A DNA stretch of 64,000 nucleotides from Vanrija pseudolonga (taxonomy: Eukaryota > Basidiomycota > Tremellomycetes > Trichosporonales > Trichosporonaceae). Of the stretch, positions 693 through 12,506 are shown one piece after another. The notes beneath the pieces were generated by a model. That model worked only from the letters and a program-made list of their open reading frames with translations. It searched no databases and had not been told where the DNA came from. Every line of letters starts with the position of its first letter. Positions within the stretch are counted from its first letter, which is position 1. The translations under genes and the position numbers were made by a program. The stretch lies in contig NC_085851.1 in assembly GCF_020906515.1 (NCBI RefSeq), positions 2,170,001-2,234,000 on the forward strand. The letters run 5' to 3'.

Positions 693-3476
693 CTACACGC
701 CCCGCGCGCGCTTCTCGCGAAAGAAGCCCGCGATGCCCTTTGCCGCGGCCGACCAGTCGTCTGCCACAACCACGTCCTCCCCGATCCACTTGGGCAGCCT
801 GGAGCGTATCCTCTGCGTCGCGTACCGCCTGTCAACGAGCAGGATGACGGCATAGTCGTTTGCGTGGCGGATCGCGCGCCCGATAGACTGGTTGACGGCC
901 CGCATACACAGGTTGGTGTATAGCTCGTTGGCCGCGTCCTTGCTCGCGCCGGGCAGCCGCTCGACGTAGCGCATGCGCTCCTGCAGCTCGACCGAGCCGA
1001 CGTTGGCGAATGGCAGGCCGACCATGACGACGCAGCGGCCGAGCCGGTCGGAAAAGTTGATGCCTGCGGGTCAGCTGCAGTAAGCACGGCCTACTCACCC
1101 TCCGACAGCTTGCCGCCGACCACGGCGAACATGAGCGCGCCGGTACGTGGCCGCCCAGCCGCGTTGAGCTCTGGCGCATCGATCGCGCGCGCATAGTCGC
1201 GCAGCGTGCTGTCCACCTCTGCAGCCGACTGGGGCTCGTAGAACAGCTTCTTCTTCTGGTCGAGCTTGTCGAGCAGGCTACTGCCCCACGCGGTCTTGAG
1301 CTTGTCGAGGAAGGCGTATGATGGGAGGAAGACGACCACACCGTCGGGGACGAGGCCGACGGCGGAGAGCAGCGCCGCGCCAAGCTCGGCCAGCAGCGCG
1401 TCGTCGCCGCGGTTCGAGAACTTGAACTCAAAGTCGAGCTTGCGCGGCCCGCGCGACACGACCTGCGTGAGGAGGTTGCTCTTTGGGATGACGTGCGCGC
1501 AGGACAGCGTGGCGAAGCGCTCGCGCGGGACAGAGGGGAAGAGCTGCGAGTAGAAGTCGGATACCGGCTCCATTGTGCCACCGGCGAGCACGATCGCGCG
1601 CGCGCTCTTGACCACGTCGGCGAAGCGCTCGGCCGGGTTCAGCAGCACGTACTTTACCAGCACGGCGCCGTTGTCGAGGGACAGGATCACGCGCCCGTCG
1701 TCCCGCGCGTCGGTGAGGGACAGCAGGAACGCCTCAACGTTGTGGAACGCCGCGATGGACGCGTGCCGCGCCGACGTTGTGCGCGGCCGACGCTCGCTCT
1801 TCGCTGCCGCAGCCTCCTCAAGCGACTCGGCGTACCCGCTGACTTTGCGGCTGAGCTTGCTTTCTTTCAAGTACCTGACGAGCTCGATGAGATTCACCGC
1901 GTCGCCTGCGCCGCCGACACGCGCCATGAGCGCGTTGACGTCGAGGAGCTCCCCCTTGGCCTTCGCCTTGTCCGTGCCTGCGTCAATGGCATAGTTGTCG
2001 CACACCTTGCCCAGCCCGCGGAGAACGGCCAGCGTCTGCGATATCCACAGCGCGTGGCGTGGCTTCAGTCGCGAGCGGAAACGAGCAAGGTACTGCGTGA
2101 GCTGTGCCGCCGCATTGGACAAATGTGACGCCGGCAGCGTTGTCGAGTATATTCCCAGTAGGGTATCGATGAGGTCTGAAGTCAGCACCGCCCCGCCCTC
2201 CCAACCCACTATGCGCCTCGTCAATGACCACGACCTGGCTCGTCAGGTCGATGCCGAGCGCCTCGCGCGCGCTGGCCTGCAACAGCAAGTTATACGGCAG
2301 CGTAACGAGCTGCGACTGGCGCACGGCGCGCCTTGTAGCATAGTATGGGCACACGCCGGCCGCGCGCCCTTCGAGCACGAGGTCCTCGATATCCCGCACG
2401 GTCGCGAGCACGCCGTCGCGCGCGTCGAGCAGCCGCGGGTCGTCGGCCTTGGGGAGGAACTCGCACCGCGCCCCACTACCGCTCTTCTGCAGGTCGAGAC
2501 ACGCCTCGTTGAGGCGCGTCTCGTCGCGCGCCCGCGCGCGTACCTTGTCGTTGATGCACATCTGCTTGCGTGACGCGAGGGGCACGAGGCTGATATTGTC
2601 GTCTGCGCCCGCGGTCCCTTCTCCCTCTTCGTCTTCCTTGCCGGCCGGAAACGTCGTCTTCAGCAGCTCGGCCGTCAGCTGGCGCAGCTGGCTGTGTGTC
2701 CTCGAAGCAAAGTACACCTGCTGTCAGTCCCACGCCGCACCACACCAACCCACCTTGGGCACATTCTCCTCTTCCTCCTGCTCTTCCTTCTTCCTCCCGC
2801 CATCCAGGGTAGCCATGAGAGCCATGACCTCGGCGGAAAGATTCGAGTCGGCGGGTGCCGCATCGCCGTCATCAGGCAAGAACCGATCTTCGCCCTTGTC
2901 CTCGACGTCGCCCTCGGTCGCTACACGCGCACGTTTACGCCCAAACGCGCCCGCCGCGTTGGCGCGGCGCAGCCGCCCCTCCTTCTCCCGCACGGCCGCG
3001 AGACGCGCGGCACGCGCCTCAGCAGCAGCGTGGAGCTCGCCCATGTGTCGCTTGACCGCGCTCTCAATCACCCATGGCGGGTCTGGTGGTGCGTCAGACG
3101 TGCCGTCTCGCAGCTACTCACCATCCGGGTCCTCGGCGGTGAAACGCGCGCGTAGATCGGCCTCCGCGGCGTCGTCGAGCCGCTTGCCGTGCGCGCTCAG
3201 CCACGAGAGCGTCGCCGTGAGTAGGGTGAGACTCTTGCCCGTTCCTGTAGGCGACTCGACCTGCCGTCAGCTGTGTCGCGTGCGCGGGCGACCCACGATC
3301 GCGATCTTGCCGTCCTCCAGCGCGGCGAACACCGTCCGCATGAGGTCGAGCTGGATGCTGTAGGGCTGCGGGTAGGGGAACGGAAAGGACTCCGGCGTGG
3401 CGAGGTGGGGAAGCGCCGGCCCCGCCTCGGCTGCCGCGGGGGTGCGGCTGCTCGACGCTTCGGCGTTGGTCTCCAT
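693..3476 (-). CDS. CHL1: CHL1/DDX11-type Fe-S DNA helicase
   Basis: Six exons (3476-3297, 3260-3122, 3082-2754, 2717-2210, 2175-1099, 1063-693) give 867 aa, a normal length for the family. Visible in order: N-terminal IQLDLMRTVFAALEDGKIAI, Walker A ESPTGTGKSLTLL formed across intron 1, a charged insert, YFASRTHSQL (motif Ia), four Cys of an Fe-S domain (QMCIN, EACLDL, ARCEF, GVCPYY), the VVIDEAH box completed across intron 4, GKLSEGINFSDRLGR across intron 5, and QSIGRAIRHANDYA (motif VI). The family unwinds DNA in S phase and supports sister-chromatid cohesion. All catalytic motifs are intact. The five introns are only 34-39 nt long, each with a CTGAC-like branch site. The start is the first Met before the conserved helicase N-terminus. 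Confidence 0.95.
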
Positions 3477-5141: not shown

Positions 5142-6108
5142 ATGGCTTCCTCCACTGGTGAGTATACCAGCGACAGCGACAGCAGCAGCAAGCACGAAGG
5201 CAACGACGGCACGGCGAACGAATCGACCAGGCAGCGGTTGTGGAACGAGAGAGAGAGAGGGAATCAACGGACGGCAGCGGATCGCACACGACGTACCTTG
5301 GATGGTATCGACACCTACACCGATATCGACATGATGGGCAGAGGGGGCTGGGACGGAGAGCATGATGGCCGAGGGAAGCCCGTTGCCGTTGCTCGAGGCG
5401 CCGTCGCTGGAGGATTGTTGGAGCGACCGCGAAACTTCGCCAACACGGTGCCAACAATTTCGACGGACAGCGCAGACGACCAGCGACACGATCACCAACA
5501 CTGCCGACCCTCTCTTTCTCGCCCGCCGAATGCCTGCCGTCGAAGCGTGTCGCCCGTGCTGTCGTGCTAGCTGCAGCTGCTTGCTAAACCCCTGTCACAC
5601 GAATCTAACATCCCAGGCCTCGCTTCGGACCGCCGCAAGTCGCGCAAGGCGCACTTCTCCGCCTCGTCGGGCGAGAAGCGCAAGATCATGTCCTCGTCGC
5701 TGAGCAAGGAGCTCCGCGCCAAGCACGGTGCCAAGTCGATCCCCGTCCGCAAGGACGACGAGGTCCTCATTGTCCGCGGCAAGTACAAGGGCCGTGAGGG
5801 CAAGGTCACCCAGGTGGGTAGCGTGGGGCGGTGAGGTTGCAGCAGCGAGGGCTCTCTCGCTACTGCTTCCTCTACCGCTCGCCGGCGAGCCGTGAACAAC
5901 CCCCCTAACATTCCCCCAGGTCTACCGTAAGAAGTGGGTCATCCACGTCGACCGTGTCCACATCGAGAAGTCGAACGCCGCCACCGCCCCCATCGGCATC
6001 TCGCCCTCGAACGTTGTCATCACTTCGCTCAAGCTCGACAAGGACCGCAAGGCCATCCTTGAGCGCAAGAACGGCAAGAAGACCGAGGAGGCCGCCAAGG
6101 CCGAGTAG
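5142..6108 (+). CDS. RPL26: 60S ribosomal protein L26 (uL24)
   Basis: Exons 5142-5157, 5617-5813 and 5920-6108 give 133 aa, close to the usual 127-145. Exon 1 codes only for MASST plus one base and is followed by a 459-nt first intron, a layout common in fungal ribosomal protein genes. The KOW segment is visible ([20 protein letters not shown]), followed by [17 protein letters not shown] and a Lys-rich tail. The protein binds 25S rRNA near the polypeptide exit tunnel. I looked through the long intron for box C/D or H/ACA snoRNA signatures and found none convincing. Confidence 0.96.
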
Positions 6109-7647: not shown

Positions 7648-10388
7648 ATGGCTGACGCAGCCGGCTCGCCGACCACTGCGACCGCGAGGCCAGAAACAGG
7701 CGCCGCCGCAGCCTCGTCATCATCACGGAGGGACAGCGCGTCCGCCTACGCCGCGCTCGAGGCGCGAGTCGCCGCGACAGAGGCCTCGTTCGCCGCCCTC
7801 CAGGCCCAGGTCAGCCGCCTCAGCTCCATCGTCAAGGCTGCACTCCCCGACGCCTCGACCCCGCCAGCTAGCTCGGCAGTGCCGCCGCCCGCCCGCGTCT
7901 TCTCGCCGTTCGACCCCCCCGCAAGTCCCCCATCACAGCAGCCGGCGTTCCAGCCGATCGGAACCGCACCCCGTCGCAGCAGCCCTACGCCTCCGTCGAC
8001 AGGCGCTGCTCCGGGCGCTCCTGGTCCCGGTGGCAGCGTTGCTGCTAGCGACAGCAGCACAATCGCCGCGCTCACACAACAGATCGCCGCGCTCTCCACT
8101 AGCGTCGCCCAGCTCCAGCGACTGCAGTCACACAATGCCATCGCCGCGCCGCCCCCGCCGCTCGGCTACCCGGCTTCGGGTGGTGGCCCCCTTGCCCCGC
8201 CCAACGGCCACCCGCACGGAGGCCACAGCGGTGGGCCAGGCCAAGGCCCGCCGGGGCCGCAGGGACCGCCAGCGCTCGGCGGCCTCGCACGCCAGATGGC
8301 GGCGCCCCTGGACTCGATGCCAGGCCCAGGTCCACTCGGACCCCACGTCAGTCTTCTCAGCCCGGGAGGTGGCCGCGGCGACTTTGGCGGCCCCCAGCGC
8401 GGCGCCAACAACCGCCCGTTCTCCACCAGCCTGCTGGTCGACGACAACAAGTGGGGTGCGCCGCCCGGCGGCAAGTTTGGCGGAGGTCCGGGGCCACTCG
8501 GAAACCTCGGAGGAGGCCCAAGCCGCGACTGGCAGAGCTCTGGGCCTGGCCCGCTCATAGGCACGCCGCCCAATGGCGTCAACACTGGCGCTGCTGCTCC
8601 TGGTGCGGGCATCGTGGTGACCAAGTGGGAGCACCTCAACCTCAAGGTCGAGTTGTTGCGCTCAATCGCAAAGTATGGGTGAGTGGTCAGCGTCCGCCGG
8701 CGGTAGCTTACCGAGAAGTATCGGCCCGCCAAACAAGATCCAGGCGCGCGTTCTCCCTTTTATGCTCAAGGGCTCTGATATCATTGCGCAGGCTCCTCCG
8801 ACACAGGAGCGCATCATCTCATAGTGGGTCGAGGTGGTAGTTGCGTAGTGCTGACACTTTTAGCGTCATCCCAGCGCTTCAGTTGTGTCTTTCGCTGCCT
8901 CCGCCGCAGGGCCCTTACCGTGGTCCGGCTGTCATCATCATCACCACGACGGTGGACCAGGCGACGCAGTGCCACAAGCGTGAGTGTGGCGTGAGCGCGA
9001 ATGTCTCAGTTGTCTGACGCCGTGGCGCAGTCGTGAGAAACGTCGGCGGACCCTTGGGTGTCCGATCCGCTTTGGCTGCCGGTGCGGCGGGCTCGGGCAA
9101 CCTGGCGGCCGAGGTTGGTGCCATGCAGCGCGACGCGATTCAAATGCTTATCGGCACCCCGGCCAAGATCAACGAGGTGATGAGTGCCCGTGGCGCTCTG
9201 TCGGGCAACGAGTGCCGCCTGCTTATTCTCGACGAGGTTGACCAGTTAATCGCCCGCAACTTGTATGAGAACGTGCTGAGTGTGGCGCGTTTGCTTCCTT
9301 CGCCGCGCAGGCCAGGTGGCAACCTCACCCCCGGTGGACCCACGCCGTTCTCACCGGTCGTCGGCAGCCCGTACGACAACGGACAGCACTCGCCGTTCAA
9401 CCCGCAGAGCAAGACGCCGTTCCCCTCGGTTCAGCCCTCGCGATTCAGCACCCCTGGCGCAAACGGCGCGCCCCCTCCCTCCCCCACACCGACGATCATT
9501 GACCGTCAAACGTGTCTCTTGTAAGCTGCAAGGGCTCTTCTCGATGGTAGCTAACCAAGCAGCTCCAACACAATTCCCACTGATGTAATCAACTTTTCCC
9601 AAACGCTCCAGGTACGCGACCCCGTTCGCGTGCTTGTGAGGCGCGAGGGCTCCACAAACTCGCAAGAATCTGTCTCATCAATCACTCCTGGCATCAATCT
9701 CAAGCACACATATGTCTATCTCACAATCACGGGTTCGGCACGGACGGACGAATCGGCCGCAGACGGACCGGGCACCATTGGCTCGGGGCGCGCCAATGCC
9801 GGAGGTGGCGGCGCTGTCAGCGAGGAGGCGACGCGCGCAAAGGAGTACAAGCTCGACATGCTCGTCAAGATCCTCGACGACTACCCGCTTTGGCAGGCGG
9901 TTATCCACGTCGGCACGTACAGCATGCTCGAGGCGGTCGTGTACAAGCTGAGCGGTCGCAACTGGGAGACGCTGTATCTTGCTTCAGACATGCCTCCTTC
10001 GCAAAAGAAGGCAGTCCTGCAGCAGTGGCGATCGTCGCACCCTGGCCAGGGCCCGCGCTTCCTCGTCTGCTTCGACGTCAACCCCAAGCCTCCTGACATT
10101 CCGTGGACACCACTGGTGGTCAACTTTGACCTCCCTCGCTCTGTCGAGGGGTACGCCCTTCGGGCGGCCGCCGCTGTCCCACCCGCGCCTCGCCAGGGCC
10201 AGCCGTCGCCGCATGTCAACGGCGTCGTCGTGAGCTTTGTTCAGGCCGCCGGAGGAGACGTCGAGATGCTCCGCTCTACCGAGTGTGCCTATCGTTTCAA
10301 GGTGAGTTGAGCTTTGCTTGAATGTGGACTGACAACTCCCCAGTCTGCCGAGATCCCTACTGTCTTCCATGACCTGTTCCAGCACTAG
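7648..10388 (+). CDS. eIF4A-like DEAD-box pseudohelicase with long Pro/Gly N-terminus
   Basis: Six exons (7648-8678, 8719-8823, 8864-8979, 9031-9520, 9563-10301, 10344-10388) give 841 aa. Residues 1-330 are Pro/Gly-rich, with a short coiled coil near residues 30-60. From about residue 330 the fold follows eIF4A: LNLKVELLRSIAKYG, a Q-motif-like KIQARVLP, then GSDIIAQA. The catalytic motifs are gone: Walker A is PPTQERI instead of SGTGKT, DEAD is DEVD, SAT is SNT, and the HRxGRxxR region reads ALRAAAAVPPAPRQG. The second RecA-like domain is still recognisable (RDPVRVLVRRE, NWETLYLASDMPPSQKK, PLVVNFDLPRSVEGY). I infer that it can no longer hydrolyse ATP and acts as a scaffold or regulator, perhaps in translation or mRNA binding. 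No function is known to me. Confidence 0.85.
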
Positions 10389-10976: not shown

Positions 10977-12506
10977 ATGTCCGTCTACGTCGGCGAATGT
11001 GAGTGGCTCCCGGCCCCTCGCTACCCCAGCTGACTGACCGACGCTAGCCCGCGGCGAGCTGCTCGCATGGCTCAACGACCTCCTCGCGCCCAACGTGCTC
11101 ACAAAGGTCGAGGAGTGCGGCAAGGGCGTCATCTACTGCCAGGTGGGTGTTGCTGGGTGGGGTGGTGCGGCGTGCGTGGTGCAGAGTGCCATGTTAGGTG
11201 GGCGCAGCAGTGTCGCTCAACGGCGCACCCACACACCCCCGCTCGCACCACGCCCGGACCTACGAAGCACTGCTGACGCGCTAGGTCCTGGACTCGATTT
11301 ACGGTGCGTCGGGCTCGGTGGCGGCGGGGCAGGCGGCGGCGGAGATGTCGGCGCGCGCGGCGTAGCGCGGCGCATGCGAGCTATCGCGTGCGCGCTTGAC
11401 GGCGACAACCACCTTCACCCCTGCACCAGCGCCAAGATCGGCCCACTAACACCTTCCCCCAGGCGACCTCCCCATGTCGCGCGTCAAGCTCAACGCCAAG
11501 ATGGAGTACGAGTACCTCGAGAACTTTAAGATCCTGCAGAAGGCGTTTGCCAAGCACAGGATTGACAAGGTGGGTGCTGTGTGTGTGTGTGGGTGGGGTG
11601 GGTGGGGGGGAAGGCTTGGGCAGGTTGGGCCCACATCAGCGGTCGAGGCCGCCTCGCTCATCCTCGCGTTATCGTCGGCGCTAACGCGCCTTTCTTCCTC
11701 CAGCCCATCCCGGTCGAAAGACTCGTCAAGTGCAAGATGCAGGACAACCTCGAGTTCCTGCAGTGGATGAAGAAGTTCTGGGACCTCAACTCGAGCGGGG
11801 CCGAGTACAATGCCGCTGCGCGATCTGGCGGCGTGATTGCCGCTGCGGCGCCAGCGCCGTCCCGCGCGCCGGCTGCCGCTCGTCCCTCTGCTGCTGCTGC
11901 GCGCTCTGCGGCCCCGGCCCCGCGCGCGTCGAGCGCCGGCTCCAACGCCCAGGTCCAGCTCCTCAACTCGCAGGTCCAGGAGCTGCAGGCTACGTGTGAG
12001 GGGCTCGAGAAGGAGCGCGACTTTTACTTTGCTAGTGAGTTAGCCGGCCCCGCGGAGCGGGGGCGGTGTGGGTGCTGCCGTGGGTGGTGGCGCCACAGCT
12101 GGCCGGGAGCTGTCACCGCCGAACTGGCCAACGGCCGCGGCGTCGAGTTGGACGCACAAAGAGATCCTGGCTAACCCCCCCCCAGAGCTCCGCTCCATCG
12201 AGCTCATCGTCGGCGACAGGATCAACCTCGACGAGGTCGACCCCATTGAGCGGGAAACGCTGCAGAAGGTCCAGGAGATCCTCTACCAGACCGAGGACGG
12301 CTTCGAGGTGGGTGGGATGGGGGAGCTGGGGGTGGAGGGCGTGAGGCGAGCGTGCCGCCAAAAGGGAGAATCCCAGGCCTGTGTCGCGGGCCCCACGCCT
12401 CGCCCCCAGCTGGACGCGTCGCCGGCAACTAACACCCCAGGTGCCCGAGGGCGAGGAGCTGCTCGAGGGCGACAGCCACCACCTTGACGACGAGGAGACG
12501 TTCTAG
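10977..12506 (+). CDS. BIM1: EB1-family microtubule plus-end protein (Bim1/Mal3)
   Basis: Seven exons (10977-10998, 11048-11142, 11285-11303, 11463-11569, 11704-12034, 12186-12307, 12441-12506) give 253 aa. The N-terminal calponin-homology domain is clear ([55 protein letters not shown]). An Ala/Pro/Ser linker follows. The EB1 dimerisation domain comes next ([31 protein letters not shown]). The protein tracks growing microtubule ends and recruits partners. Exon 3 is a 19-nt micro-exon. The C-terminus is acidic and ends DDEETF, close to the EEY/F tail that binds CAP-Gly proteins in animal EB1. The start MSVYVGESRGELL has the family's usual N-terminal length. Confidence 0.95.

What the first reader, a model, noticed from the sequence alone, without database searches (positions are those of the whole stretch)
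7648..10388. eIF4A-derived pseudohelicase with a 330-residue Pro/Gly N-terminus
Seen: a full two-RecA-domain eIF4A-like layout in which motif I (PPTQERI), motif II (DEVD), motif III (SNT) and motif VI (no HRxGRxxR) are all replaced, yet the frame is intact over six exons and non-catalytic framework motifs such as LNLKVELLRS and RDPVRVLVRRE are kept. Known: DEAD-box enzymes need motifs I, II and VI for ATP hydrolysis. Inference: selection has kept the fold while dropping catalysis, so it may act as a dominant regulator or scaffold of eIF4A/eIF4G or of another mRNA complex. I know of no described member.
Basis: partly seen in the sequence, partly recalled or inferred. Interest (0 to 1): 0.8.

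Follow-up and report, generated by a model that had tools for sequence, protein, structure and literature searches.

The report
Ancient dead-enzyme cousin of eIF4A
This yeast-like fungus (a Vanrija species) carries a relative of the protein-synthesis helicase eIF4A that has lost the parts needed to use ATP, and the same altered protein is found in all three main branches of the Basidiomycota, so it looks like a maintained non-enzyme and not a decaying gene.

Summary
A six-exon gene at 7648-10388 encodes 841 aa: an eIF4A-type two-RecA-domain core after a P/G-rich N-terminus. The window is a Vanrija close to V. albida. The family spans Agaricomycotina, Ustilaginomycotina and Pucciniomycotina. 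Of 304 proteins fetched, 290 carry the replaced motif I, five lack the region or are broken, and the nine with a Walker A loop are eight outsiders plus a Mortierella pseudo-eIF4A/eIF4A fusion model. In 194 filtered cores the RecA1 motif loops are nearly frozen in their new form (entropy 0.22 against 1.15 in the rest of that domain), while the RecA2 motifs vary more than their domain. The tree gives one origin, next to eIF4A/Fal1. So it is a maintained pseudohelicase. Proposed mechanism, inferred: an ATP-independent scaffold, joined by an N-terminal coiled coil and docking on an MIF4G-type partner; only part of the eIF4G-contact surface is kept. A 2025 review lists two basidiomycete-specific Ustilago DEAD-box genes, one probably this family, as having canonical motifs; that identity was not checked by sequence.

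The parts
7648..8678 (+). exon 1: N-terminus, two predicted helices, P/G-rich stretch, start of RecA1
   Evidence: gene model
7747..7845 (+). N-terminal helix 1 (residues 34-66, by similarity to the V. albida model)
   Evidence: coordinates
8056..8127 (+). N-terminal helix 2 with heptad pattern (residues 137-160)
   Evidence: coordinates
8623..8678 (+). start of the eIF4A-like core (KWEHLNL...LLRS), with the residue matching eIF4A1 R45
8719..8823 (+). exon 2: Q-motif region (8723-8743) and motif I replacement APPTQERI (8792-8815)
8864..8979 (+). exon 3: motif Ia replacement (TTTVDQATQ, 8943-8969)
9031..9520 (+). exon 4: motif Ib (GTPAKI, 9153-9170), motif II (DEVDQLIARNL, 9231-9263), low-confidence linker
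9563..10301 (+). exon 5: motif III SNT (9564-9572, just after the Phe codon split by intron 4), RecA2, helix matching eIF4A1 D265/E268 (9840-9881), altered motifs IV-VI, GGDVEMLRS (10251-10277)
10344..10388 (+). exon 6: C-terminus and stop

Best explanation
A maintained, vertically inherited pseudo-DEAD-box protein of the eIF4A/eIF4AIII kind. Shown: sequence and predicted fold of eIF4A type; Walker A, motifs Ia, IV and V and the second and third Arg of motif VI replaced; RecA1 cleft loops nearly invariant in their new form; a heptad pattern in a helix before the core. Inferred: the protein neither hydrolyses ATP nor clamps RNA; it oligomerises through the coiled coil and presents eIF4A-shaped cores as a constitutive, ATP-independent scaffold or competitor. 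The partner class I think most likely is an MIF4G/HEAT protein of the eIF4G-CWC22-NOM1 kind, docking on the RecA2 helix and the LLR patch, while the rebuilt RecA1 cleft packs its own loops together or holds a second ligand.
Against: D296, whose change alone weakened eIF4G binding in PMC7470955, is kept in 0 of 194; T298 is Glu or Asp in 194 of 194; D265 is Lys in 23 of 194, namely this window and 22 Tremellomycetes-side proteins. Three of five kept is not significant against a background identity to eIF4A of 0.31 (binomial about 0.18, worked by hand). Q-motif Gln, the DExD acids and S-x-T are kept, so nucleotide binding is not excluded. The heptad pattern was written after seeing members. Grouping with Dhh1 is not firmly rejected (p 0.051). 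No interaction, expression or enzyme datum for a member was seen. The 194 rows were chosen by start motif, end motif and length out of 304 proteins.
Confidence: 0.5

Rival explanations
1. A decaying pseudogene or recent degenerate eIF4A copy.
For: Several catalytic motifs are lost.
Against: 290 of 304 fetched proteins carry the replaced motif I; new motifs nearly fixed; core 6 of 522 changed against N-terminus 48 of 312 between two Vanrija.
Confidence: 0.01
2. A non-canonical ATPase or nucleotide sensor: a nucleotide is bound through the Q-motif, DExD and S-x-T with a new PPTQER loop.
For: Q59, D182, E183, D185, S213 and T215 (eIF4A1 numbering) are at least 0.99 in the weighted family, and K82 is Arg at 1.00.
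Against: GxGK glycines replaced, Glu at position 81, R362 and R365 of motif VI and motif V replaced and variable.
Confidence: 0.15
3. An ATP-independent RNA-binding protein that still grips RNA with the helicase cleft.
For: DEAD-box fold; Thr-Pro of motif Ib kept at 1.00; P/G-rich N-terminus.
Against: Motif Ia Arg to Val (0.98), motifs IV and V replaced and variable.
Confidence: 0.14
4. A scaffold of a complex unrelated to MIF4G proteins (ribosome assembly, as for Utp25, or mRNP granules).
For: Utp25 is a precedent of a DEAD-box-like, non-catalytic assembly factor (PMC9539457, abstract and part 1 of its description read); two of five modelled eIF4G contacts are gone.
Against: R45, D265 and E268 places largely kept.
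Confidence: 0.2

Closest known systems
eIF4A (DDX2) and Fal1/eIF4AIII (DDX48)
   Same: Two RecA domains in the same order; best sequence and tree matches, fold as close as any listed; helix with the D265/E268 places mostly kept
   Different: No Walker A, motifs V and VI replaced, long P/G-rich N-terminus with heptad helix, low-confidence inserts between and before the domains
Utp25/DEF pseudohelicase
   Same: DEAD-box-like fold without working catalysis, disordered N-terminus (PMC9539457)
   Different: Utp25 lacks the DEAD sequence and is described in yeast, zebrafish and human; this family keeps DExD and is eIF4A/Fal1-type; no Utp25 match in Pfam up to E 1
Ustilago maydis UMAG_05873 (with UMAG_00835), basidiomycete-specific DEAD-box genes
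   Same: Phylogenetic span fits; probably one of them is this family
   Different: The review states several canonical motifs and treats them as helicases (PMC12511879, section 14 read); identity not checked by sequence

Membership tests
DEAD-box RNA helicase (active enzyme) | Walker A motif I AxxGxGKT | tested here: not met
   APPTQERI in the window; G[TS]GK[TS] in 0 of 221 and in 9 of 83 proteins, the nine being P0295 and P0297-P0304
DEAD-box RNA helicase (active enzyme) | Motif II DExD | tested here: met
   DEVD in the window; D, E and D at 0.99-1.00, third place Val 0.83
DEAD-box RNA helicase (active enzyme) | Motif VI HRxGRxxR | tested here: not met
   VEGYALRAAAAVPP in the window; R359 kept at 0.79, R362 mostly Pro (0.42), R365 mostly Asn (0.29)
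DEAD-box RNA helicase (active enzyme) | RNA-dependent ATPase | not testable with these tools
   needs purified protein
eIF4A/Fal1 subfamily (by descent) | Clade with eIF4A and Fal1 apart from other DEAD-box rows | tested here: met
   25 of 30 rows on one side of a branch, 97/92; long branches warned of, and a grouping with Dhh1 has p 0.051
eIF4A/Fal1 subfamily (by descent) | Two RecA domains of DEAD-box fold | tested here: met
   RecA2 not aligned alone
eIF4G-binding eIF4A | Modelled contact residues R45, D265, E268, D296, T298 | tested here: inconclusive
   three kept or conservative, two replaced; D265 is Lys in this window
Utp25 | Match to a Utp25 profile | tested here: inconclusive
   none listed up to E 1; that Pfam holds Utp25 models is recalled
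pseudohelicase | Helicase fold, conserved, catalytic motifs lost, non-catalytic function shown | tested here: inconclusive
   first three met; function not tested

The most novel reading that the evidence does not exclude
A phylum-wide pseudo-eIF4A in which the former ATP pocket was rebuilt into a fixed, self-packed surface while the RecA2 catalytic motifs were let go, making a coiled-coil-joined, permanently 'on' eIF4A mimic that controls an MIF4G protein; a related pseudo-eIF4A in Mortierella, sharing one deposited protein model with eIF4A, would place its origin before the Basidiomycota.
Probability: 0.28. Interest if true: 0.75.

Novelty: new variant of a known kind. Interest (0 to 1): 0.55.

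Why it matters
Many of these proteins are named RNA helicase or translation initiation factor in the source databases (names). If they cannot use ATP, those labels mislead across a phylum, and Basidiomycota would have an extra, non-catalytic eIF4A-like layer in mRNA control. The nearly frozen replacement loops pose a sharp, testable question: what does a DEAD-box cleft do once ATP is gone?

Tried and rejected
RRM fusions: eight listed proteins carry a precomputed RRM (P0036, P0118, P0222, P0223, P0225, P0226, P0227, P0231). Their N-termini (seven printed, P0036 as the query) fall in two kinds: one in three Tulasnella (P0036, P0225, P0226), PABPN1-like by PDB matches of P0036, and another in the rest. 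A native-looking start (...LNP.S.PFFPG after a Met) lies inside six of the seven printed. Read as gene models fused with neighbours, not as evidence of function; P0105 carries a P450 domain (Pfam number, name recalled) in the same way. In this genome the nearest listed RRM match on the same contig is about 160 kb off.

Parent: not resolved. AU tests: pseudo rows with eIF4A alone p 0.15, with Fal1 alone 0.051, with Dhh1 0.051; the Mortierella pseudo row with eIF4A alone 0.036, with eIF4A and Fal1 but not the basidiomycete rows 0.051. Its branch is long (1.44), so its kinship with the family is unsure. P0296 is also long (1.8) with odd composition, and was counted among the 18 pseudo rows. In P0295 a pseudo core runs into a canonical eIF4A; tandem genes, fused model and true fusion cannot be told apart.

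dN/dS: not computed. The genome and viral collections are prokaryotic or viral, metagenome scans were capped at 0, and I searched none of them for relatives. Absence from Ascomycota is not shown: two searches listed 120 of 368 and 120 of 429 hits, and the third saw lengths of about 1007-3204 aa only. RecA2 was not aligned alone; the rows covering both domains have rmsd 7.5-22.5 A because the domains sit differently. Model coordinates cannot be read here, so loop packing was not seen. Literature: ten searches showed no paper that calls this family a pseudohelicase; PMC11941951 (one passage) mentions UMAG_00835 only; PMC2216682 (one passage) gave no binding result.

Full report
What is there. 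The gene at 7648-10388 on the plus strand has six exons and 841 codons plus stop. The best database protein is a Vanrija albida protein of 836 aa, 99% identical over the core, so the window is from a close Vanrija (Trichosporonales). No second copy was found in its own genome: the exon-5 DNA matches itself alone, and a family protein finds this locus at E 2.5e-82 with the ordinary eIF4A locus next at 1.2e-25 (only the best candidates are scored).

Family. Three protein searches gave 368, 429 and 95 hits at E 0.001 or better; 120, 120 and 95 were listed, 304 distinct proteins in all. Named members come from Tremellomycetes, Dacrymycetes (Calocera), Agaricomycetes, Ustilaginomycotina (Ustilago, Meira, Tilletia, Exobasidium) and Pucciniomycotina (Leucosporidium, Sporobolomyces, Rhodotorula, Microbotryum); class and subphylum of genera are mostly recalled. 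Motif I: PPT[QT]ER in 216 of the first 221, AP[PSA][TI][QT]ER in 74 of the other 83, 290 of 304. Of the five others in the first set, P0008, P0150 and P0152 start after motif I, P0032 starts still later, and P0025 seems a broken model. The nine others in the second set, P0295 and P0297-P0304, are exactly the nine with G[TS]GK[TS]: P0295 holds a pseudo core and a canonical eIF4A, P0297 looks like an ordinary eIF4A, P0298-P0304 are weaker hits outside the family.

Tree. With 30 rows and 376 columns, the 18 basidiomycete pseudo rows are one clade (100/100). The Mortierella pseudo core joins them (99/94, long branch), and with eIF4A and Fal1 they separate from five other own-genome DEAD-box rows (97/92). 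The subphyla come out inside the family, which fits vertical descent. The tool warned that long branches meet, and constrained trees are not firmly rejected, so descent from the eIF4A/Fal1 stock is likely and the exact parent open.

Selection. Between window and V. albida the core has 6 differences in 522 aligned residues, the N-terminus 48 in 312 with 9 gap columns. Across 194 cores (193 of 304 proteins that passed start, end and length filters, plus the window) motifs I, Ia, II and III are nearly fixed in their new letters: mean entropy 0.22 against 1.15 for other RecA1 columns, 0 of 20000 draws as low. Motifs IV, IVa, V and VI have 1.71 against 1.33, 170 of 20000 draws as high. One half of the old active site was rebuilt and frozen, the other released. 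The four RecA1 loops occur in two linked sets that split the 16 Pucciniomycotina rows from the rest; this is one evolutionary switch, so only a hint that the loops pack on each other.

Mechanism. Of the residues modelled at the human eIF4A1-eIF4G interface (R45, D265, E268, D296, T298; PMC7470955, passages read), three are kept or conservatively changed in most rows and two are not; D265 is Lys in the window and in 22 other rows, all among P0001-P0023, the Tremellomycetes side. In that paper E268R and D296K each weakened binding, and the R45 pair gave no rescue. eIF4A3 D270K/D273K cannot bind CWC22 (PMC4482076, one passage). I therefore propose a coiled-coil scaffold for an MIF4G-type partner, perhaps not eIF4G itself, and mark this step as inference. 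Kept DExD, Q-motif Gln and S-x-T leave nucleotide binding open.

What is known. Utp25 is a DEAD-box-like pseudohelicase (PMC9539457, abstract and part 1 of its description read). PMC12511879 (2025; passages and section 14 read) reports UMAG_05873 and UMAG_00835 as basidiomycete-specific DEAD-box genes with several canonical motifs (data not shown there) and suggests a translation role for UMAG_05873 from STRING. UMAG_05873 is the likelier member; this was not tested by sequence. Motif names and limits used in the scripts are recalled.

Noticed in passing
window 1983-2723 (-): Frame with a DEAD_2 domain (Pfam 138.8 bits); neighbouring minus-strand frames look like one Chl1/DDX11-type helicase (name recalled).
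   Followed up: partly
window about 10978-12500 (+): Neighbouring gene with a calponin-homology domain, EB1-like by eye.
   Followed up: partly
window about 5900-6107 (+): End of an upstream gene that reads like ribosomal protein uL24/L26 (recalled, not searched).
   Followed up: no
P0295 (Mortierella antarctica, database protein): A pseudo-eIF4A core with altered motifs followed directly by a canonical eIF4A in one 1277-aa model: tandem genes, fused model or true fusion.
   Followed up: partly
window 9774-9791; family cores before RecA2: An IGSGR element in 217 of 221 proteins of the first two searches, mostly missing at a loose pattern in Ustilaginomycotina and Pucciniomycotina: a possible clade-specific element.
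   Followed up: no
P0235 (database protein labelled Adiantum nelumboides, a fern): 288 of its last 300 residues equal those of the Meira protein P0233: probably fungal contamination of a plant assembly.
   Followed up: partly
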